From a virus: a stretch of 48,161 nucleotides of DNA. Positions 22,210 through 34,598 of the stretch are shown piece after piece. A program made the translations under genes and the position numbers. Below the pieces are notes generated by a model. That model was not told the DNA's origin. It made no database searches and saw nothing but the letters and a program-made list of their open reading frames with translations. The first letter of the stretch is position 1, and each line of letters starts with the position of its first letter. Where the stretch lies: positions 1 to 48,161 of IMG/VR virus record IMGVR_UViG_3300015164_000002. One strand, given 5' to 3'.

Positions 22210-22803
22210 TTGTGCGCTATGATTACCCATCTATGGCTCCTTACATTAGTGGCTGTTCTGGAAGAGCCTCCGTCGACAGACTGGGCGAAGGGTATTGTAG
22301 CGTTTTTCGTAGTCGCAGCGGCGGTTATAACAGGGTCGGTCACTACTTACAAGGTTATTAAAAACATAAGGGCTAACGCTCGGGCCGCGAAAACTAATGA
22401 AGAAGCTGCCATTAAGAAAAGGATAGAAGACGCGGTTGCTGCCGAGACAGCACTTCATGTTGCAGCCAAAGTAGAGGCAGAACATCAGCTTCAATTAGCT
22501 AACAAGCTGACCGAGCATTGGGAGTCTTTAGCTAATGTTTTCAAAGCAGAAAAAGAACACCTACAAGAAACTTCCGAAGCAGATAAGAAAAAGTTTGAAA
22601 TTGACATAATAAGGATCAGGGATGAGCGAGAAGTATTGACAAACCAGCTTTTGGCTGAGAGGGCTAAGGTGGAGCAAGTCGTTGATTTGAATCTGGGGTT
22701 GCAGGGGCAAATAACCGAGAATTCAAAACACTTGAAAGCCGCCTCCCTACAAATCGAAGAACTTCAAAAGAAAGTGACTAGAATAGATGGAGTCCAATCA
22801 TAA
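22210..22803 (+). CDS. membrane protein with long coiled coil, holin-region candidate
   Basis: TTG at 22210 sits ~4 nt after GGGAG; the ATG at 22219 is further from it. Two hydrophobic segments are present: ITHLWLLTLVAVL and ~27-48 GIVAFFVVAAAVITGSVTTY. They are followed by ~140 residues of charged coiled coil (EEAAIKKRIEDAVAAETAL onward). It shares the RANARAAK peptide with the upstream spanin-like protein. The place in the lysis cluster makes a holin or holin-associated role possible, but the long tail is atypical. Confidence 0.55.
   Translation: MCAMITHLWLLTLVAVLEEPPSTDWAKGIVAFFVVAAAVITGSVTTYKVIKNIRANARAAKTNEEAAIKKRIEDAVAAETALHVAAKVEAEHQLQLANKLTEHWESLANVFKAEKEHLQETSEADKKKFEIDIIRIRDEREVLTNQLLAERAKVEQVVDLNLGLQGQITENSKHLKAASLQIEELQKKVTRIDGVQS
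22369..22388 (+). repeat. 20-bp direct repeat, copy 2
   Basis: Identical to 22123-22142. It lies just after the second hydrophobic segment of the coiled-coil membrane protein. Confidence 0.6.
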
Positions 22804-23293
22804 AGCGGCGGGCTGCTCAGATAGTGTCAAACCTAGAATCTTAGTCGTTGAAGACTCTCCTGATATCAGCGATTTGCTTAGAGAGGCGTTCAGGCATCTT
22901 CCGGAGTATGATTCTGTCTTTGCTGAGACTGGTACTGAGGCCCTGAATATCTTTACAGCTTCTATACGGTGCTGCGAAAACACAGGAGTTCTAATGGATC
23001 TAGTACTCCCCGATATAAACGGCCTTCGTCTATTGAGCGCATTCAGAGAGATTGAAAAAGGAAGTGCACGAGGCTGTACTCCATCGCGATTCGGGTTGAT
23101 CTCAGCTAATACTCATGTGGCTGAAGGTACAGATTTAATCAAAAGAGTGGGCGTGACTCTGAGACTTGATAAGCCTTTTGATTTGGTCACATTCAAGGAT
23201 AGAGTAGAGGAATGGATTACCAGCCCTCCTCCTGATCTGTACGCATTATGTGCTGGCGCGAGCGTAAGTACAAGAAGAAATGTCAGTCACTAA
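22787..23293 (+). CDS. stand-alone response-regulator receiver domain protein
   Basis: CheY-like receiver: acidic pair E22/D23 in RILVVEDSPD, phosphoacceptor D71 in VLMDLVLPDINGL, S106 in LISANTH and K129 in RLDKPFD are all in place, so it should be phosphorylatable by a histidine kinase. The output domain is absent; a ~30-residue polar tail with SVSTRRNVSH follows. It overlaps the upstream gene by 17 nt and the terminase small subunit by 14 nt, so it is expressed with lysis and packaging genes. It could divert host phosphorelay signals. The target kinase is unknown. Confidence 0.8.
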   Translation: MESNHKAAGCSDSVKPRILVVEDSPDISDLLREAFRHLPEYDSVFAETGTEALNIFTASIRCCENTGVLMDLVLPDINGLRLLSAFREIEKGSARGCTPSRFGLISANTHVAEGTDLIKRVGVTLRLDKPFDLVTFKDRVEEWITSPPPDLYALCAGASVSTRRNVSH

Positions 23294-25709: not shown

Positions 25710-26222
25710 ATGAAAGTGATTTATCTACTCTTGGATGCAGACGGGGACCCGAGATACATTGGGTACTCTGCAAACATTCGTAGAAGATTGGCTGAGCATA
25801 GAAGACAGCATCCATGGTTGGTCACGTTTGTACTTCTCGATGTAGTTCATCCTTGGCAGACTTGGCAGGAGAGAGAACAGTTCTGGATTGAGTATTACTT
25901 GCAGTTTGCAGAATTGATGAACATAGCTCGGGGAGGGAATGGTACTGGTTGGACTTCATGGGAAGCTCGGGCCAATCTCAGCAAAGCTTTGAAGGGTAAG
26001 AAGAAACCTCCTCGCTCAAAACAACACAGCGCTGCAATTGCTGCAAGTAATCAAGGCAAGAGACATTCAGAAGAAACTAAACTCAAAATGTCTCTAGCTA
26101 GGAAGGGCAAACCTAAACCAGAAGGCCACGCGGAAAAGATTAGGAAATCATGGGAAATTAGAAGACAGAGATCTCCGCATAATAATGGCCACAGATACGA
26201 GGAGGCCATTTCGTGCAAATAA
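25710..26222 (+). CDS. GIY-YIG homing endonuclease with NUMOD3-like repeats
   Basis: Residues ~1-75 form a GIY-YIG domain: VIYLLLDADGDPRYIGYSA replaces GIY...YIG, followed by a conserved Arg in RRRLAEH and a Glu in EREQFWIEYY. The C-terminus carries Lys-rich NUMOD3-type DNA-binding repeats (LSKALKGKKKPPRSKQHSAA, ASNQGKRHSEETKLKMSLAR). Free-standing homing enzymes of this type sit between phage structural genes, as here between terL and the portal region. The next gene starts inside its 3' end, with the SD for that gene in its coding sequence. Confidence 0.8.
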   Translation: MKVIYLLLDADGDPRYIGYSANIRRRLAEHRRQHPWLVTFVLLDVVHPWQTWQEREQFWIEYYLQFAELMNIARGGNGTGWTSWEARANLSKALKGKKKPPRSKQHSAAIAASNQGKRHSEETKLKMSLARKGKPKPEGHAEKIRKSWEIRRQRSPHNNGHRYEEAISCK

Positions 26223-26596
26223 CCAAGATGGAAACCACTGGGTTCGAAGATTATGAGGTATTATCAATTGTCCCGAGGACATTCTTCGGGTTCAAATTGC
26301 CTTGGAAGAAATCACTCGAACTCAAAGGGGTGCTGGAGGCAGATGACAAGTCTGGCAGAGTCGTTTCTCAAGTCACGACTCCAGAGGGCCATCCGATTTA
26401 CACGAACGGCACTGATGATATCTACCTTGAAAACGCTGTCAAGATGCTGATGCTAATTCCCGGCGTTGTAGCTGCCTTTCTTGGAGCCGGCTTCCGACCC
26501 AAGACCGAAACACAGCACTATACCGAGCTCAAGATTATCAACCGAAACCCAAGCGCCGCACTGGCTGCGCTAGAACTGAGCAATGCCGATGGATAA
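26213..26596 (+). CDS. hypothetical protein between terminase and portal (127 aa)
   Basis: GTG at 26213 with GAGGAGG ~8 nt upstream; an ATG five codons later is the alternative. The sequence is beta-rich (EDYEVLSIVPRTFFGFKLPW, LKGVLEADDKSGRVVSQVTT) with one hydrophobic helix (MLMLIPGVVAAFLGAG). Overlaps the portal ATG by 14 nt. Position suggests a head-completion or packaging accessory protein, but no family is recognised. Confidence 0.55.
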   Translation: MQITKMETTGFEDYEVLSIVPRTFFGFKLPWKKSLELKGVLEADDKSGRVVSQVTTPEGHPIYTNGTDDIYLENAVKMLMLIPGVVAAFLGAGFRPKTETQHYTELKIINRNPSAALAALELSNADG

Positions 26597-29138
26597 GCCA
26601 TTCAAAAGTCTAAACGACCAGCTGCTTGAGGACTGCAAGAGTGTACCCCTCAGCGGCAACCTACCTTTCCCCAGCTGGGGTTCTGGCTATGGCTCGTCTC
26701 AAATCTTTCGATCAGAGCAACATTGGGACGCATACATCGACTCTCAGACTGGATTCAGCGCTAGCAGGTCTGTCGAGCAATACCAACAACAGCTTGGAGA
26801 TCCACTTGATAACTCTCTGGTGGCCGCTGCCTGTAGATTCCTTGGTGATGCCATCCCGGAAGCTCCTCTAGTTGTTAAGAAGCGCCAAGATGTCAACAAA
26901 GATGGGACGACCGAGAAGAGCGAGTCGATCCCAGTACCTGATCACAAACTCACCAAACTTTGGGACCGACCAAACGATAGTTATCAGGGAGTGCAGCTGA
27001 AGAAAGGTCTTGCCCTCTCGCTCGTTCTCTCTGGCAACGCTTACGTCATTAAGTTTTTTGATAACATGGGCTTCAACCCTCTGGAGTTGTGGTGGGAGCC
27101 TCATTGGAGCATTCGACCAGTCTGGCCCATTGACGGTTCAAGCTTCATCGCTTACTACGAAGTTAACAGAGGCGGTATCTGGTATCCCGTACCGGTTGAG
27201 CAAGTCATCCATATCCGAGACGGAATCCACCCTTACAATCAACGCCTCGGATGGAGCGGTAACCGGGCCGTATCTCGTGAGCTTTTCGGTGACCAAGAGG
27301 CTGGTGCCTACTATGCAACCCTCATGGGAGGCTCAGGCGTACCCGGGTTCGCAATTAGCATCGATGCCAGTCGGCAAGGAGTTACACAAACTGACATTGA
27401 TGCTTTAGATCGCCGCATGGCTGAAAAGACTCGGGGATCTAAGAAGGGCCAACCACTTGTTCTCTATGGAGCACGTCCTTACAAACTTGGATTCAACCCT
27501 CGTGAGTTAGACCTTCGTGAGTCTCGATACATGGCTGAGGACCGCTTCTGCGCCGTGCAAGGTATCCCTGCTGTCGTCCTCGAGTTGGGAACTGGTAATG
27601 TTCATTCAATCTATAAGAATGTGTCTGAGGCTCAGAAGCGAGCATGGCGCAACTACGTCTGCCCGAAGCTAACTCTGATTGAGGAGACTCTGAATTTCCA
27701 GCTGCTCGAAGATTTCGAAGGCAAAGACTCGGGTATGTATTGTCGTCATGATCTTGCTCAGGTCGAGGCCCTGCAAGAAGAGTCAGACGCGAAAGAAAAA
27801 CGCATGAGCCACCTGTATACTAGTGGTGGTATTATGCGTAGCGAGTTGCGTGCCTCAATGGGATACGGCCCTAGTAATCCTGACGACCCAGAGGCAGACC
27901 GAGTCTGGGCCAAGATGTCTGCTGATGAGCAGGCCGCCAGAGCAGACGAGAAGGCGAAAGAAGCATTGAAGCTAGCTGAGACCCAAGCGAAGAACCCGGT
28001 CAACAAGTTAGTGAACGGAGTAAATTTACCCGGTAGCATAACACCACCTAAAGGTGGCAAGCTTGCTCTCGTTAAAAAAGCACCTATGAAGTCGGCTCAA
28101 GACCTCATTACATGGGTTGATTTCCCTGAGTATTTCGGTTCTCTGGGCATCCCTCGCACTTCAATGCCTCAAGTCTTATCAGCTCACAGAGGGGCTATGG
28201 TTCAGTTTTTGAAGGGTCGAGGGATAAGCAATAGGAAAGAGAATGTGCTGCCGGGAGCCCTGAGACCATCGCAAAAAGAATACTCCCCTGAAAAAGTAGC
28301 AAAGGCAAAGGTCTGGGAAGGCCCTCAGCGCCCGCTCCTCGTCAGTGATGATGGTTATGTTGCAGATGGGCATCACCAGTGGGCTGCTGCTCTCGAAGCC
28401 GACCCCATGACTGAGATTCCAATTTTCAGGCTTGGGGCAAATATCGTCGAGCTGCTGCTAGAGATTGCTCGATTCCCATCCTCAGGGGTTGCCACCGCAG
28501 ATGACAAGCGTCTGTTTTGGAATGGCAATGGAGTAGCAACTAAGGCCATCCCGGGAATGCGCTCTGAGTTTACCGACATTCTACCAAATTGCGAGGTTAA
28601 ACTCGACGACATGGATGTGGTGCTGGCCCTCTTGGCTACCGACCGCATCCTGACGTTTGCGTCAGAGTTTCCTAAACCGGCTTCTCTTCTAAGAGAAGTT
28701 ACGATGGAGCCGAACGAAAGGGAAACCAACCTTGCTTATGTGCGTCTTCTCGACGACGGCAACTACAGAATGGTTTTTAATTCTTCGCTCTGGACAGACC
28801 CAACAATCATGCAGGCCGCCTTGACCGAAACAATCGGTAATGACGATATTTCTACCTTCCCTGTAGATACCGTCGAGTCAACCATTGACCACGAGCTTGC
28901 TCACGTTCTCGATGGATGGACCAAACAGAACAAGAATGGTAATGCTGAGGTCAGCAGTGACAACCCAGTTTGGGCCACCGAAGACGCTCTCAACATTAGT
29001 CGTTACTCTGTGGCTGGCCCTGCTGAGGCCTTTGCAGAGGCATTCGCTATCAGACAATTGTTCGGTATTGAAAAGATCCCTGCCGGCGAGATTCGGCAAT
29101 CGATGGAGTCTACTATTTCGTTCGCTGCTGAGGCATAG
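26583..29138 (+). CDS. portal protein fused to ParB-like and HExxH metallopeptidase-like domains
   Basis: Residues ~40-440 are an HK97/SPP1-type portal: VAAACRFLGDAIPEAPLVVK, the LSGNAYVIKF strand, the stem and crown region with AVQGIPAVVLELGTGN, and the LYTSGGIMRSELRASMGYGP segment. A charged linker (~440-500) leads to a ParB-like part (~500-630) with LVSDDGYVADGHHQWAAAL (D595-GHH). The last ~200 residues hold HELAH at 770-774 (TIDHELAHVLDGW) and a downstream Glu candidate (E815 or E819 in AEAFAEAFA), as in gluzincin-like peptidases. At 851 aa it is about twice a plain portal. C-terminal domains may be injected or virion enzymes. Confidence 0.8.
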   Translation: MPMDKPFKSLNDQLLEDCKSVPLSGNLPFPSWGSGYGSSQIFRSEQHWDAYIDSQTGFSASRSVEQYQQQLGDPLDNSLVAAACRFLGDAIPEAPLVVKKRQDVNKDGTTEKSESIPVPDHKLTKLWDRPNDSYQGVQLKKGLALSLVLSGNAYVIKFFDNMGFNPLELWWEPHWSIRPVWPIDGSSFIAYYEVNRGGIWYPVPVEQVIHIRDGIHPYNQRLGWSGNRAVSRELFGDQEAGAYYATLMGGSGVPGFAISIDASRQGVTQTDIDALDRRMAEKTRGSKKGQPLVLYGARPYKLGFNPRELDLRESRYMAEDRFCAVQGIPAVVLELGTGNVHSIYKNVSEAQKRAWRNYVCPKLTLIEETLNFQLLEDFEGKDSGMYCRHDLAQVEALQEESDAKEKRMSHLYTSGGIMRSELRASMGYGPSNPDDPEADRVWAKMSADEQAARADEKAKEALKLAETQAKNPVNKLVNGVNLPGSITPPKGGKLALVKKAPMKSAQDLITWVDFPEYFGSLGIPRTSMPQVLSAHRGAMVQFLKGRGISNRKENVLPGALRPSQKEYSPEKVAKAKVWEGPQRPLLVSDDGYVADGHHQWAAALEADPMTEIPIFRLGANIVELLLEIARFPSSGVATADDKRLFWNGNGVATKAIPGMRSEFTDILPNCEVKLDDMDVVLALLATDRILTFASEFPKPASLLREVTMEPNERETNLAYVRLLDDGNYRMVFNSSLWTDPTIMQAALTETIGNDDISTFPVDTVESTIDHELAHVLDGWTKQNKNGNAEVSSDNPVWATEDALNISRYSVAGPAEAFAEAFAIRQLFGIEKIPAGEIRQSMESTISFAAEA

Positions 29139-29140
29139 GT

Positions 29141-29596
29141 ATGAGTGATTGGGTGGTCTCGATTAAAAGAGGTTCTACCTTCCGAGTGCCTATATCTATC
29201 GTTGATGCGTCCGGCGCGCCTACTTCATTTGTTGATGCCACATTCACCATTACCCCAGAGGGCGGCGGCACACCGATTCAACTAACGACTGCGAATGGGA
29301 AGATCAGCATAGCTCCATTTCAGTGGAAAGAAAGATGGTGGCAAGAAACCCCTTATGTTATCAACGATGTAGTCATATTCAAAGGTAAGCTGTGGATAGC
29401 TATTCAGGCAAACACTAACCATCGCCCAATGTCGGGGCAGTGGTGGAAACTTTTTTCATCGTTTGAATTTCTAATCCCGGATGCAGAGACAGCAACCTAT
29501 TCATGGTCGAAGGGTACTTACAAATGGCGGGTGGTTCGAACAAATGGGGACGTGGAAAATGACTACTTGTCTGGAGATGTAGAAGTCAATGCCTGA
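29141..29596 (+). CDS. virion fibre/baseplate-like protein with chitin-binding-like insert (151 aa)
   Basis: The N- and C-terminal parts are beta-rich (STFRVPISIVDASGAPTSF; TYSWSKGTYKWRVV). Between them, ~65-105 (WQETPYVINDVVIFKGKLWI, then HRPMSGQWWKL) follows the pattern of CBM5/12 carbohydrate-binding modules: W...Y..GD.V...G..W.A......P....W. It is common in phage fibre and capsid-decoration proteins that bind sugars. Starts 2 nt after the portal stop; overlaps the next gene by 8 nt. Confidence 0.6.
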   Translation: MSDWVVSIKRGSTFRVPISIVDASGAPTSFVDATFTITPEGGGTPIQLTTANGKISIAPFQWKERWWQETPYVINDVVIFKGKLWIAIQANTNHRPMSGQWWKLFSSFEFLIPDAETATYSWSKGTYKWRVVRTNGDVENDYLSGDVEVNA

Positions 29597-29984
29597 TCAG
29601 ATTACTGTAGATCGCTCTGAGCGAGTTATCATTGAACTACAGGAGGGTCAGCTCAAGGAAATTCTTGTCTCTCCAAAGATTGAAGTTGTTGAAGTAAGTA
29701 CTCAAGGCCCTCCCGGCGGGCCGGGACCCAGAGGGGTCAAAGGGGACACGGGGGACCGAGGTGTTCAGGGTATTCCCGGAACTGGTGGTGATCTAAATTA
29801 CATTCATAACCAGAATATCCCTTCAACGCTTTGGACCATCAATCACAACTTAGGTAAGAGACCCACAATAGCCTGCGTGGATAGTGCTGGTACTGAATTT
29901 GAGGCCGAGGTTCATCACGTCGATGATAACAACCTCACCGTTTTGATAGCGTACGCGATCTCAGGAAAGGTGTATTGTAACTAA
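29589..29984 (+). CDS. collagen-like fibre protein (131 aa)
   Basis: Residues ~40-68 are Gly-X-Y repeats (GPPGGPGPRGVKGDTGDRGV continuing), forming a short collagen-type triple helix. The N-terminus is a small attachment domain. The C-terminal ~60 residues (WTINHNLGKRPTIACVDSAG then EVHHVDDNNLTVLIAYAISG) match the knob repeated at the end of the next protein, a common fibre tip in phage tail or head fibres. Trimeric fibre inferred. Confidence 0.7.
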   Translation: MPDQITVDRSERVIIELQEGQLKEILVSPKIEVVEVSTQGPPGGPGPRGVKGDTGDRGVQGIPGTGGDLNYIHNQNIPSTLWTINHNLGKRPTIACVDSAGTEFEAEVHHVDDNNLTVLIAYAISGKVYCN

Positions 29985-29985
29985 C

Positions 29986-31020
29986 ATGCCAAAACCACAA
30001 CTCGTTCCAATCGACATGAATAAGCTGGAGATACTGAATGTCCTTCTCCAGAATCTTGCTGCTCAACCCGGCACTCCAGGCACTGGGCGCTTCTACTTTA
30101 ACACTGTCTCCAAGACTCTTGAATTCTATACAGGCATTGGGTGGACAGTGCTCGGCACGCTTGACCAGATTTCTGCTCCGATAGCTAGCTTGAGTCTGAA
30201 TAATCAAAAGATTACTAACCTGCTGCCGGGAACTGCTGGTACAGACGCTGTAAACCTGAACCAGTTGAATTCACTGGTGACGGGGTTAGAGACTACTCCC
30301 CCGGCTCGGGCCGCATCCACAGCCAACGTCAATATAGCGAACCCGGGGACCTCGACATTTGACACCATCGTTCTAGCTGTTGGGGAGTTGCTCTTGCTCA
30401 GGGCTCAGGCTGCTCCTGCTGAGAATGGCCTCTACATTTTTAATGGTTCTGGTGTAGCCCTCACTCGTCACCCATCGATGGATGTGTGGGCAGAGATTCC
30501 CGGCAAACTTATTATTATTCAACAGGGAGCCACCTACGATAATACCATTCACCTGTCGACTGCTGACCCGGGTGGTACTCTCGGCGTAACCGCCGTCACA
30601 CTCACAATGCTACCCCTCACCGCTTTGGTGGCCGGCGCCGGTATGCTTGCCACTGGCAACACGTTTGATATTGTTGCAGCGGCAGGGTCAGGTATCATCG
30701 TCAACCCTGACAATATCGACATTGACCCGGTCAACGGGCTGCCGGTCAACCGAGGAGGTTCAGGAGCGATCAATGTCGCAGGAGCAAAAGCTAACCTTGG
30801 TTTTCTAACCCGGTTTACTCTCAACATTGGGGACAATGCAGCAGTCTCATTTAATGTCGACCACAACCTTAACACCTTGGATGTTCAGGTTTCCATTCGA
30901 AGAGTATCTGATGGAGTTGAGGTCGAGGCAGATGTAACAATGTCTACAGTGAATCGAGTAATCGTGGCTTTTGCAGTTGCACCGACAGCGAATCAATACA
31001 GAGTAGTGGTAATTGGATAA
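29986..31020 (+). CDS. fibre protein with tip domain (344 aa)
   Basis: The N-terminus (QNLAAQPGTPGTGRFYFNTV...LEFYTGIGWTVLG) is a phage fibre motif. Then NQKITNLLPGTAGTDAVNLN repeats typical of tail-fibre shafts, a beta-rich receptor-type region (~130-230), and a C-terminal tip (NVDHNLNTLDVQVSIRRVSD then VNRVIVAFAVAPTANQYRVV) related to the tip of the 131-aa protein. Probably a host-contact fibre. Its position between portal and protease is uncommon for tail fibres, so head fibres are also possible. Confidence 0.65.
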   Translation: MPKPQLVPIDMNKLEILNVLLQNLAAQPGTPGTGRFYFNTVSKTLEFYTGIGWTVLGTLDQISAPIASLSLNNQKITNLLPGTAGTDAVNLNQLNSLVTGLETTPPARAASTANVNIANPGTSTFDTIVLAVGELLLLRAQAAPAENGLYIFNGSGVALTRHPSMDVWAEIPGKLIIIQQGATYDNTIHLSTADPGGTLGVTAVTLTMLPLTALVAGAGMLATGNTFDIVAAAGSGIIVNPDNIDIDPVNGLPVNRGGSGAINVAGAKANLGFLTRFTLNIGDNAAVSFNVDHNLNTLDVQVSIRRVSDGVEVEADVTMSTVNRVIVAFAVAPTANQYRVVVIG

Positions 31021-31023
31021 CGA

Positions 31024-31551
31024 ATGGCGAAACCCAGACTCGGTTCAAAGGATGGGAATTCTTCTGTAGCCTCTCAGGCCATTACAGCAGCTACTCCTAC
31101 TGTAATCACTGGTTCTACTATACCCATCCCTGCCGGCGGTCTACGTATTGGTACAGTTTTTCGATTCACTTTCGCAATCACCAAAACAGCAGCAGGTATC
31201 ACAACCAGCGTAATCGTTTTTCAATTGGGTACCGCAGGCTCTGTAGCTGATGCAGATATTCTAACTTTTACTCTACCAGTAGGTACAGCTGTGGCCGATG
31301 CTGGTTGGGCGGAGCTAGTTGTTACAATTCGAGGACCTCTTGGTGGCTCCTGCATCGCGCAAGGTGTACTAGCTTTTGGACACAATGGAAATACCACAGG
31401 GTTGATCAACATACCAATGGCTGTACTCACAGCTGTTTCTGGTATTTTTAACTCGGGTGCTTTAGGTTTAATTGCCAGCATTGTATTTAACACCGGTGCT
31501 TCTCAGGCATGGACTATTACTCAAGTGGTTTCCGAGACAGCGAACCTCTAA
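31024..31551 (+). CDS. beta-rich virion protein, probable fibre tip or decoration (175 aa)
   Basis: The start is 3 nt after the previous stop. The product consists of alternating short beta strands with many Gly, Thr and Val (ITAATPTVITGSTIPIPAGG, TVFRFTFAITKTAAGITTS), a jelly-roll-like composition, with no Cys and almost no charge. This fits capsid decoration or fibre-tip proteins. No family signature. Last gene of the fibre cassette; a ~75-nt gap with an AT-rich hairpin follows. Confidence 0.5.
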   Translation: MAKPRLGSKDGNSSVASQAITAATPTVITGSTIPIPAGGLRIGTVFRFTFAITKTAAGITTSVIVFQLGTAGSVADADILTFTLPVGTAVADAGWAELVVTIRGPLGGSCIAQGVLAFGHNGNTTGLINIPMAVLTAVSGIFNSGALGLIASIVFNTGASQAWTITQVVSETANL

Positions 31552-31628: not shown

Positions 31629-33203
31629 ATGGCTCTGATGACCACGACAGCAGGGTACCCGCCTGACCCGACCCCGGGAGGCAAAGTCAAGGTCAACCTA
31701 ACACCTGAGGGTGCGACAATGAAACAGTGCTCAGTCTGCGGAATGGCGAAGGACGATAACCCGGCCCACAGTAGTGACTACTCGGGACCCGGGAAGCATG
31801 CCTTCTCGAAAGCTGAAAAATCCGTTGCCTTTTTGGACGAGGGTGACGAGGGCTTGAGCGTAGGACTCAATGATGAGTCTCCTGTAGCTTTCGGCGGCGC
31901 TGTCAAGGCTCTGGGCATTGAAAAGATCAACGGTGTCGAATTCGGTACTCTCGAAGGCCCTGCTGTAATATTCTCAGGCGAGGGTGATGGTGACATTGCT
32001 AACGATTTCTTCACCAAGAGCACCGACTACTTCTTCGAGACGGATGACTTCAAAGCTGTCCGCCCTGTCATCTACGACCACGGCCTCGACGACACCATGA
32101 AGTCCAAGAAGATTTCCCGGGCCACTCTCGAAATCCGCGAAGACGATGTCTGGTTCAAAACTCAACTCGACCTCAGCGATAAATACAACAAATTCGTTTA
32201 CAAATTGGCCGAGCTAGGCAAGCTGGGTACGAGCACAGGCAGTGCTCCTCACTTAATTCAGCGCGAGGCTGTAGGCAAGTCGACATGGATTAAGGCATGG
32301 CCCATTGTTGAACTCTCTCTTACCACCAAACCGGTCGAGCCCAAGACAAAGGGCAAGGTTCTGGCCCTCAAATCCTACTCTGATATTGAGCGCTGCACTT
32401 TTGTGAAATCCATCGAGGGTTTGGAAGGCTCGGAAGAAGTATTGCCGCCTCCGCCGACCCCTGAGGAAGTCAGCAAGAGGATTGTTAAGTCGCCGATGAA
32501 GAGTTTATTCGAAACCAAATTGGCCGAACGTACTGAGTCTATCTATGATTTGCAGAGCACCTTCCAAGAAGTGTGCCGTGACATAGTTCAGGCTGCTGAG
32601 GCCGAAGACATTACGGGCGTAACAATTGATGTTGCAGCTAAGGTCGCAGAGGCCGGCGCTGAATATCTCAATCGTTTAGTACCCCTCGCTGTTCAACAAA
32701 TGACTCAGTGGTTGAAGAACAAACAGAATGGCGATGCAAGTGGGTATTGTGAGGGCGCTTTCTGGCTGAGGTCGTTGCCCTCCCTATTAAGCGAGAGCCC
32801 GTTGAAAGGTCTTCTTAGCATCGAGGATTCTCTGGTGACCGGAGGAGCCCTCGATGAACACTCCACAAAGGTGGTGACCGCCGTAGAGGAGTACGCAAGC
32901 ATGAGCAAGTCGTTGGTACCCAAGCTCAACGTTTGGGTCGAGCGGCTAGGTGAAAAACTTGAGTTTCGCGCTAACGATGCAACGAAGTCTGGGCGAACTC
33001 TTTCCAAGGCTACGCTTCAAAAGCTCGGTGAGGTAGTGACCGGGCTGAAAGAAGCATTGGCTTCCGGTGGGATGACTCTTGAGGCTTTTGAAAAGCTACT
33101 CGATGAGGCAACCCCGAAGAAGGCATTGGCTGATGGAGAGTACGCTTCAATCCTTTTTGCAATCGAGAATACGAAACATCTAAATGAAATGGCTGGCGTA
33201 TAG
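31629..33203 (+). CDS. HK97-family prohead protease with long C-terminal extension
   Basis: The U35-type serine protease domain spans ~95-250. H151 lies in VIYDHGLDD, S202 in LGTSTGSAPH, followed by the conserved WPIVELSLTTKPVEP strand. It matures the capsid by cutting scaffold and capsid N-termini. The N-terminus has CSVCGM...NPAHSSDYSGPGKHAF, a CxxC/His zinc-like tag. The C-terminal ~270 residues are helical and acidic, like a scaffold, so this may be a protease-scaffold fusion (524 aa against ~200-250 for plain proteases). The SD is weak. Confidence 0.8.
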   Translation: MALMTTTAGYPPDPTPGGKVKVNLTPEGATMKQCSVCGMAKDDNPAHSSDYSGPGKHAFSKAEKSVAFLDEGDEGLSVGLNDESPVAFGGAVKALGIEKINGVEFGTLEGPAVIFSGEGDGDIANDFFTKSTDYFFETDDFKAVRPVIYDHGLDDTMKSKKISRATLEIREDDVWFKTQLDLSDKYNKFVYKLAELGKLGTSTGSAPHLIQREAVGKSTWIKAWPIVELSLTTKPVEPKTKGKVLALKSYSDIERCTFVKSIEGLEGSEEVLPPPPTPEEVSKRIVKSPMKSLFETKLAERTESIYDLQSTFQEVCRDIVQAAEAEDITGVTIDVAAKVAEAGAEYLNRLVPLAVQQMTQWLKNKQNGDASGYCEGAFWLRSLPSLLSESPLKGLLSIEDSLVTGGALDEHSTKVVTAVEEYASMSKSLVPKLNVWVERLGEKLEFRANDATKSGRTLSKATLQKLGEVVTGLKEALASGGMTLEAFEKLLDEATPKKALADGEYASILFAIENTKHLNEMAGV

Positions 33204-33221: not shown

Positions 33222-34598
33222 ATGGCGGAACATGTGCCCTACGAGCGTACCGACTTTTGGAAGGGTCTGGCGTTCAAAGCCTTGGGCGAGGCAATCCAAA
33301 CGAAGTATCAGGAAATGCTCAAGATGAACGAGGGTGATGCCCTCAAGAGCGCTTCCACCGAAGTCATCAAAGATTTCCAGACGCGTAATGCTGAGTTGAC
33401 AGACATGCGCGCTCGGTTCTCGGAACTGCGAGAAGCCGATGAAGCCTTCAAGGCTCAGTCAGCAGAACACCTGAAATCCTTTGGTCAAGTCAACCGCAAC
33501 CTGCCTTTCAACGGCGGCGGCGCGGCAGGTGCTGGCGGCGAGGGTGGTGCGGCAGATCCATCATCTTTCAAGTCTCTCGCTGACTACTTCGTTGAGTCGC
33601 CGTATTACAAGGCGGTCTCAGGAAAGGAAAAACCGTGGAGCCCTGCCGCCGGCGACCGCATGACCTACGAGGCGAATGAAATTTCACTCAAGGCTCACGA
33701 GACAATTGCTCAGATGCGCGCTGATTATGGTGACGCAGCCTTGAAGGCCACCATGATGACCACCGCAGGCTGGGCGCCATTCCCGCAGCTTGCTCCGCGC
33801 CCGCCAGTGATGTCGATCCAGATCCCTCCTGTCGTTGCTGACCTCATTCCTCAGGACGACACCACGCAGGCCACCATCGTGTACTACGAGGAAACGGTGT
33901 TTGCGAACAACGCCGACTTCGTGGGAGAGGGTCAGTCGAAGCCGGAAGCTGAGTTGAAGCTCGAAGAGAGACGCCAGCCGGTTTGCAAGGTGGCTGTCAC
34001 CCTCCCGATCTCGGATGAGCAGTTGATGGACGTTCCTCAGGTCCGCTCGTACATCGACGGTCGCTTGACGCTCATGGTCAAGCAGAAAGAGCAAATCGGC
34101 CTGCTGCGAGGAAACGGCATCGCGCCTCAGTTGCAGGGCTTCCACACGAAGGAAGATATTGGCAGCATCGCTCGCGCCGATGGTGAGGACAACGCCGACG
34201 TTTTCTTGCGAGCAATCACGGAAGTCAACAGCGTCACTGGTCTGGCGAATACAAGCGGCATCATCATGAACCCGCTCCAGTGGCTGGCGATTCGCCTAGT
34301 CCGCACTAAGACAGGCGATTACATCTGGGGTCACCCGTCGATTCAGGGTCCGCAGACGCTCTGGGGATTGCCAGTTATCTCCACGAACGCCGAGCTCGAC
34401 GGATTGGGTCTGGTAGGTGACTTCCAGATGTTCTCTCACATCAGCCGTCGCATGGGAATGCGGATTGACGTTGGTTACATCAACGAAGACTTCAAAGATA
34501 ACATTCAACGCATCAGGGTTGAGGAACGCCTGTCGCTTGAGATTTATCGCGCGAAGGCTTTCTGCGAAGTCACCAACCTGAACAAAGCCGGCGAGTAA
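33222..34598 (+). CDS. major capsid protein (HK97 gp5-like)
   Basis: Strong AGGAG SD. Residues ~1-100 are a charged helical delta-type scaffold segment (MLKMNEGDALKSASTEVIKD onward), a Gly-rich spot (GGGAAGAGGEGG) and then the shell. GQSKPEAELKLEERRQPVCK (the G-x-x-K-P-E motif) opens the E-loop and core of HK97 capsids; KVAVTLPISDEQLMD, LLRGNGIAPQLQGF, NPLQWLAIRLV and the terminal ERLSLEIYRAKAFCEVTNL match the A- and P-domain series. 458 aa. A hairpin follows the gene. Confidence 0.9.
   Translation: MAEHVPYERTDFWKGLAFKALGEAIQTKYQEMLKMNEGDALKSASTEVIKDFQTRNAELTDMRARFSELREADEAFKAQSAEHLKSFGQVNRNLPFNGGGAAGAGGEGGAADPSSFKSLADYFVESPYYKAVSGKEKPWSPAAGDRMTYEANEISLKAHETIAQMRADYGDAALKATMMTTAGWAPFPQLAPRPPVMSIQIPPVVADLIPQDDTTQATIVYYEETVFANNADFVGEGQSKPEAELKLEERRQPVCKVAVTLPISDEQLMDVPQVRSYIDGRLTLMVKQKEQIGLLRGNGIAPQLQGFHTKEDIGSIARADGEDNADVFLRAITEVNSVTGLANTSGIIMNPLQWLAIRLVRTKTGDYIWGHPSIQGPQTLWGLPVISTNAELDGLGLVGDFQMFSHISRRMGMRIDVGYINEDFKDNIQRIRVEERLSLEIYRAKAFCEVTNLNKAGE

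What the first reader, a model, noticed from the sequence alone, without database searches (positions are those of the whole stretch)
26583..29138. Portal protein with ParB-like and HExxH metallopeptidase-like C-terminal domains
Seen: a normal portal (~1-440) continues into D595-GHH (ParB-like box) and H770-ELAH-774 with a downstream AEAFAEAFA segment carrying a candidate third zinc ligand. Known: enzyme and toxin domains are fused to MuF-type head proteins in some phages, and HExxH with a downstream Glu defines gluzincin-type peptidases. Inference: up to 12 copies of a peptidase and a ParB-fold enzyme would be built into the portal vertex, for head maturation or delivery into the host at infection. 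A two-enzyme portal fusion is not something I know as described.
Basis: partly seen in the sequence, partly recalled or inferred. Interest (0 to 1): 0.8.

Follow-up and report, generated by a model that had tools for sequence, protein, structure and literature searches.

The report
Phage portal carrying two enzyme domains
A phage's DNA-entry ring protein is fused to a ParB-like domain and a zinc-protease domain of a kind that phages usually carry on a neighbouring head protein, so each virus particle probably carries up to twelve copies to deliver into the host; the parts are known, but this combination is not one I found described.

Summary
ORF 26583-29138 (851 aa) is the window's only portal (PF04860, residues 80-426). 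Residues ~502-644 form a ParB-like domain (D595-G-H-H). Residues ~655-851 form a zinc-protease fold with HELAH (770-774), Y808 and third-ligand candidate E815. AlphaFold2 with 34 aligned sequences gives pLDDT 90.7. Structure and profile matches point to phage MuF/minor-capsid metallopeptidases and the ATLF/PPEP-1 type. A profile built without the window scores it 51 bits, against at most 19.5 for 200 shuffles that keep the EAFAEAFA motif.

The protease domain normally rides on MuF proteins, often encoded beside the portal. It is also fused to two other, distant portals (L021, L040). None of 102 closer portals carries either domain. The ParB-like domain recurs in giant phage polyvalent proteins, as solo genes, and beside the same protease in L092. 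It is not the DdrB-type ParB family.

Best reading: a portal-tethered "polyvalent" effector held inside the head, possibly freed by the phage's prohead protease at PMK503|S504 and ejected with the DNA. Head maturation is less likely, because a separate protease gene exists. New variant of a known kind. Catalysis, cleavage and ejection are untested.

The parts
26583..29138 (+). Portal gene with C-terminal ParB-like and zincin domains, 851 aa, single open frame
   Evidence: only portal-profile hit in the window
26820..27860 (+). HK97-type portal domain, residues 80-426
   Evidence: PF04860 E 8.5e-36; PHROG portal families; solved portal relatives 6tba/6te8 E 1e-11
27900..28085 (+). Linker, residues ~440-501
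   Evidence: Lies between the domain matches; no Pfam hit
28083..28094 (+). P501-M-K-S504: candidate prohead-protease cut site (K503|S504) at the portal/ParB-like junction
   Evidence: Inference: same Phi-K-S pattern recurs in the window's protease and capsid protein; HK97 capsid cut site is K103/S104 (PMC10275583)
28086..28514 (+). ParB-like (DGHH-type) domain, residues ~502-644
   Evidence: 45-51% identical to the nearest phage polyvalent proteins and solo genes; alignment with invariant R, MP, L..Q, K, DGxH
28365..28376 (+). D595-G-H-H598 motif
   Evidence: D, G and the second H invariant in 11 diverse homologues
28545..29135 (+). ATLF-like zincin metallopeptidase domain, residues 655-851
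   Evidence: AlphaFold2 pLDDT 90.7, pTM 0.89; Foldseek to phage MuF/minor capsid proteins, PPEP-1 and other M34-type folds; leave-one-out profile 51.3 bits
28890..28904 (+). H770-E-L-A-H774 zinc-binding/catalytic helix motif
   Evidence: Invariant H, E, H in A7; in helix 764-782 of the model
29004..29006 (+). Y808, conserved tyrosine before the third-ligand helix
   Evidence: At least 90% conserved in A7, although rows were partly chosen for a Tyr near this place
29025..29048 (+). E815-A-F-A-E-A-F-A: third zinc ligand candidate E815
   Evidence: 48 of 62 phage ORFs with this octapeptide have HExxH within 130 aa upstream; E815 in helix 813-827 of the model
31629..33203 (+). Putative head maturation protease of the same operon (context)
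   Evidence: 27% identical over 204 aa to the gene in the same position in L001; no Pfam or PHROG hit
33222..34598 (+). Major capsid protein (context)
   Evidence: PF05065 E 1.8e-30

Best explanation
The gene encodes the phage's portal with a C-terminal effector cargo. As portals assemble, up to 12 ParB-like plus zincin modules are placed inside the head, because the C-terminal side of a tailed-phage portal faces the interior. The cargo is probably cut free by the phage's own prohead protease at PMK503|S504 and ejected with the DNA. In the host the zincin would cleave a host or phage protein, and the ParB-like domain would act on nucleotides or DNA, as proposed for other virion-delivered polyvalent and MuF-effector proteins. 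Shown: gene fusion, domain identities at sequence level, predicted zincin fold with intact HExxH+E, kinship to MuF-borne zincins. Inferred: packaging, cleavage site, ejection, targets.
For: One intact ORF in the head operon and no second portal. Zincin fold with conserved ligands. Nearest zincin relatives sit on MuF/minor-capsid proteins, sometimes with ADP-ribosyltransferase domains. The zincin lies in the gene next to the portal in L070, L027, L270 and L267 and is fused to portals in L021 and L040. The ParB-like domain occurs in DarB-like and other giant polyvalent proteins and beside the same zincin plus a zeta-toxin-type kinase in L092. Close portal relatives carry a MuF-like C-terminus or a short tail at the same place. 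Phi-K-S sites are enriched in capsid protein and protease, and one sits exactly at the junction.
Against: No virion proteomics; cleavage, packaging and ejection are not shown. Two Phi-K-S sites in the portal are no more than chance for that protein alone (217 of 500 shuffles reach it). The tail has no close relative, so its conservation cannot be followed in near kin. Zinc binding and proteolysis are untested.
Confidence: 0.6

Rival explanations
1. The zincin is mainly an autoprocessing peptidase: it cuts the fusion itself, releasing portal and ParB-like effector before or after ejection, as proposed for phage P1 DdrB.
For: PMC5512222 proposes autoproteolysis by C-terminal metallopeptidases in polyvalent proteins. 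The zincin is C-terminal to the ParB-like domain here and in L092.
Against: The operon carries its own protease gene and a candidate cut site at the junction; many MuF zincins are themselves terminal domains with no further cargo behind them. Not tested directly.
Confidence: 0.2
2. The zincin is a head-maturation protease that processes capsid or scaffold proteins from the portal vertex.
For: It would be placed inside the procapsid; one structural match is labelled capsid maturation protease, although that label is an annotation only.
Against: A separate protease gene lies between portal and capsid genes as in L001, and related phages whose portals lack any zincin have the same arrangement.
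Confidence: 0.1
3. The tail is structural: an extended crown that binds or spools DNA, with the enzyme motifs retained by descent only.
For: Portal C-termini in relatives vary in length and content; no activity is shown.
Against: The zinc-ligand and base positions and the DGHH core are intact, and the zincin fold is predicted with high confidence.
Confidence: 0.08
4. Chance motif or assembly artefact joining two genes.
For: One contig; no close relative with the same fusion.
Against: Single frame with no stop, even GC content across the junction (0.515 portal, 0.510 tail); profile and structure support; independent portal-zincin fusions L021 and L040.
Confidence: 0.02

Closest known systems
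MuF polymorphic toxins of temperate phages (PMC5576092)
   Same: Effector domains, about 20% of them metallopeptidases, fused to a portal-associated head protein and thought to be injected
   Different: Here no MuF domain; the effector is on the portal itself, so up to 12 copies rather than the 1-2 per capsid reported for SPP1 gp7
Polyvalent proteins (PMC5512222)
   Same: Unrelated enzymatic domains in one phage polypeptide encoded in the packaging region; zincin and ParB-type domains are network hubs; PBECR and 2H domains fused to MuF or portal
   Different: The ParB-like domain is not the DdrB type; a portal-ParB-like-zincin architecture is not mentioned in the passages I read
ATLF/M34-type gluzincins (Pfam PF07737; PPEP-1/Zmp1 structures)
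   Same: HExxH, conserved Tyr, Glu in the next helix; profile A7 matches solved PPEP-1 (E ~1e-5) and an ATLF-like protein 9g0j (2.5e-9)
   Different: The window sequence alone does not hit PF07737; about 16-26% identity to its phage relatives
Phage P1 DdrB/DarB internal head proteins
   Same: Virion-internal proteins; ParB-type and metallopeptidase domains in DdrB, which is processed before packaging
   Different: Separate internal proteins, not portal fusions; the DdrB-type ParB has a different motif

Membership tests
HK97-type portal (PF04860) | Profile match over the portal core above the curated cut-off | tested here: met
   124.2 bits against cut-off 39.1, residues 80-426
Zincin (gluzincin) metallopeptidase | HExxH in a helix plus Glu in the following helix, after a three-stranded sheet | tested here: met
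   Predicted helix 764-782 with HELAH, helix 813-827 with E815, strands 703-709, 718-722, 728-733; invariant in A7
Zincin (gluzincin) metallopeptidase | Binds zinc and cleaves peptides | not testable with these tools
   Needs purified protein
Pfam ATLF (PF07737) / MEROPS M34 | Direct match of the sequence to the family profile | tested here: not met
   No Pfam match of the zincin region at E up to 10; 21 of 60 aligned sequences in A5 do match PF07737 at E up to 1
Pfam ATLF (PF07737) / MEROPS M34 | Fold of the ATLF/PPEP-1 type | tested here: inconclusive
   Most top PDB structural matches are of this type, probability mostly 0.8-1.0, but E above 1e-3 and query TM about 0.4-0.6; profile A7 matches them at 1e-5 to 1e-12
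DdrB-like ParB (PF18763) | Profile match; GNGR-type motif | tested here: not met
   No match; a verified PF18763 protein carries GNGR where this domain has DGHH
ParB/sulfiredoxin superfamily | Shared fold with LxPTQ and DGHH-type boxes | tested here: inconclusive
   Sub-threshold hits to ParBc_2 (0.097), SerK (0.07; PDB 0.7-0.9), DUF1015; hhalign to one ParBc_2 protein E 6e-4, probability 29%; fold not predicted
MuF toxin | MuF domain | tested here: not met
   No PF04233/PF06152 in the ORF; present in L040, L048, L060 and others
Polyvalent protein | Two or more unrelated enzymatic domains in one polypeptide of the phage packaging region | tested here: met
   by sequence only, activities untested
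Polyvalent protein | Packaged and delivered into the host | not testable with these tools
   Needs virion proteomics and injection assays

The most novel reading that the evidence does not exclude
The portal ring doubles as a dosing device: the phage loads exactly 12 copies of a two-enzyme effector per head by translating them as portal tails, and its prohead protease then cuts at PMK503|S504 to free them for ejection, with no MuF adaptor.
Probability: 0.35. Interest if true: 0.7.

Novelty: new variant of a known kind. Interest (0 to 1): 0.52.

Why it matters
How phages load internal effector proteins in fixed numbers is poorly understood outside a few models. A portal-borne cargo would fix stoichiometry and position by assembly alone and gives a concrete, testable cut site. 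It also shows that the same kind of zincin is found on MuF proteins, as stand-alone genes next to the portal, and on the portal itself, so portal annotations with long tails are worth re-reading for effectors.

Tried and rejected
AlphaFold2 of residues 480-851 without an alignment was useless (pLDDT 33). A direct search for the zincin by sequence found nothing in phages or in IMG/VR by peptide patterns; the EAFAEAFA and HELAHVLD DNA patterns solved this. Considered and rejected: an internal start at M502 (no ribosome-binding site seen); recent acquisition by GC shift (none); defence-system family (no PADLOC hit). Zincin and ParB-like searches of 289 genomes gave only weak hits (ParB-like best E 3.6e-6, zincin best 5.5e-8), with no portal match in any of the fetched loci. 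The query contained a slip in its first residues (KALAPMK for KKAPMK); one search repeated the comparison with the true sequence. No residue alignment to anthrax lethal factor was printed or fetched; that match is reported only from search tables.

Full report
Observation. The ORF at 26583-29138 (+) is open over 851 codons. Residues 80-426 match PF04860 (E 8.5e-36) and solved HK97-type portals. It is the only portal in the window. HExxH followed by ExFAE at suitable spacing appears in 0.005% of shuffles.

Zincin domain. Scanning IMG/VR for DNA encoding EAFAEAFA gave 72 loci; 48 of 62 ORFs with the peptide have HExxH within 130 residues upstream, usually with a tyrosine before the glutamate helix. 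HExxH was not part of the selection, so EAFAEAFA marks the third-ligand helix of a phage zincin family. A profile built without the window scores it 51.3 bits; shuffles that keep EAFAEAFA reach 19.5 at most; with EAFAEAFA masked the score is 21.8, with HExxH masked 25.5, with both masked the match is lost. In a 34-row alignment H770, E771, H774 and E815 are invariant and Y808 nearly so; the rows were chosen with HExxH and E.FA motifs and a nearby Tyr, so this shows a consistent register rather than independent conservation. AlphaFold2 on that alignment gives pLDDT 90.7, pTM 0.89, with a helix, a three-stranded sheet, the HExxH helix and the E815 helix, the core that PMC5512222 describes for polyvalent-protein metallopeptidases. 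Foldseek against viral models finds MuF-like minor capsid proteins and phage metalloproteases first (E 9e-6 to 5e-4). Against the PDB the ranking is dominated by ATLF/PPEP-1-type and Bacteroides metallopeptidases, but with E above 1e-3. The alignment profile matches ATLF-like 9g0j (2.5e-9), PPEP-1 (about 1e-5) and anthrax lethal factor (about 1e-12). The window sequence itself does not reach PF07737, so I call it ATLF-like, not a member. This is kinship of fold in a phage protein; nothing here suggests toxicity to animals.

ParB-like domain. Residues ~502-644 are 45-50% identical to parts of giant proteins of Pseudomonas phages F116 and D14S, and about 40-48% to those of Erwinia phage PEp14 and Burkholderia phage JC1 (annotated DarB-like antirestriction protein), and resemble solo genes of about 140-160 aa in Kuttervirus, Campanilevirus and T4-like phages. 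At least 497 IMG/VR stretches encode relatives. Invariant positions include R, MP, L..Q, K and DGxH. This resembles ParB boxes, and sub-threshold matches go to ParBc_2, SerK and DUF1015; a profile comparison with a true ParBc_2 protein aligns LxPTQ and DGHH (E 6e-4, probability 29%). It fails PF18763, the DdrB type, whose motif differs.

Architecture elsewhere. Of 102 nearest portals (22 in genomes, 80 in IMG/VR) none has either domain; most have a ~300-residue C-terminal region, MuF-like in those I read, or a short tail. More distant portals do carry the zincin: L021 (portal plus zincin, 666 aa; portal E 1.7e-37) and L040 (portal, MuF and zincin, 1112 aa). In L070 and L027 the zincin is a separate gene directly after the portal. 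In L270 and L267 the gene after the portal encodes a zincin behind a region that looks MuF-like by eye. Other carriers are MuF-zincin and MuF-zincin-ADP-ribosyltransferase proteins. L092 joins a zeta-toxin-type kinase, the ParB-like domain and the zincin. So the two tail domains of the window occur together at least once elsewhere, and the zincin is found on several portal-linked carriers.

Mechanism. The portal C-terminal side lies in the head interior (established portal anatomy; the crown domain is C-terminal). The operon encodes a probable protease at 31629-33203, related to the L001 gene in the same place, and a capsid protein. HK97's protease cuts its capsid protein at K103/S104 (PMC10275583). 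A hydrophobic-K-S triplet is enriched in the window's capsid protein (3, expected 0.5) and protease (5, expected 1.4), recurs at similar places in relatives L200-L203, and occurs twice in the portal, one of them exactly at the portal/ParB-like junction, PMK503|S504. In L021 an AAKS lies just after the portal part. For the portal alone the count is at chance level and the pattern was chosen after looking, so this is a lead, not a finding. I therefore favour portal-tethered effector delivery with protease release (0.6), then autoprocessing by the zincin (0.2), then head maturation (0.1).

Known or new. MuF effectors with metallopeptidases (PMC5576092), polyvalent proteins, and PBECR or 2H fusions to MuF and portal (PMC5512222) are described. 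Literature searches found no paper on a portal fused to a zincin or to this ParB-like domain, in an open-access library only. I rate it a new variant of a known kind.

Noticed in passing
L215:4752-7457: A close portal relative (902 aa) is interrupted by what looks like an intein of about 430 residues between GEH and SIYNN (starts CLPADTRIS, ends VHN before S).
   Followed up: partly
window 29141-31551: Genes with carbohydrate-binding-module, collagen-like and YadA-stalk matches lie between portal and protease genes, an odd place for fibre-like proteins; possibly head fibres or decoration.
   Followed up: no
window 22787-23293: A response-regulator receiver domain (PF00072, E 1.8e-8) directly upstream of the terminase genes.
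   Followed up: no
window 25710-26222: Homing-endonuclease-like gene (PHROG 314) between terminase and portal genes, lower GC (0.45) than its neighbours.
   Followed up: no
L092:1278-4283: Zeta-toxin-type kinase, ParB-like domain and zincin in one protein, with repeated linkers of the form S.DQPRDERGRFGSGG.
   Followed up: partly
L283:569-6217: One 1883-aa phage protein with three zincin-like segments and a C-terminal stretch that looks like an ADP-ribosyltransferase by eye.
   Followed up: no
L004:3941-4390: A solo ParB-like gene in a Kuttervirus is annotated as an unknown structural protein, hinting that the solo form may also be virion-borne.
   Followed up: no
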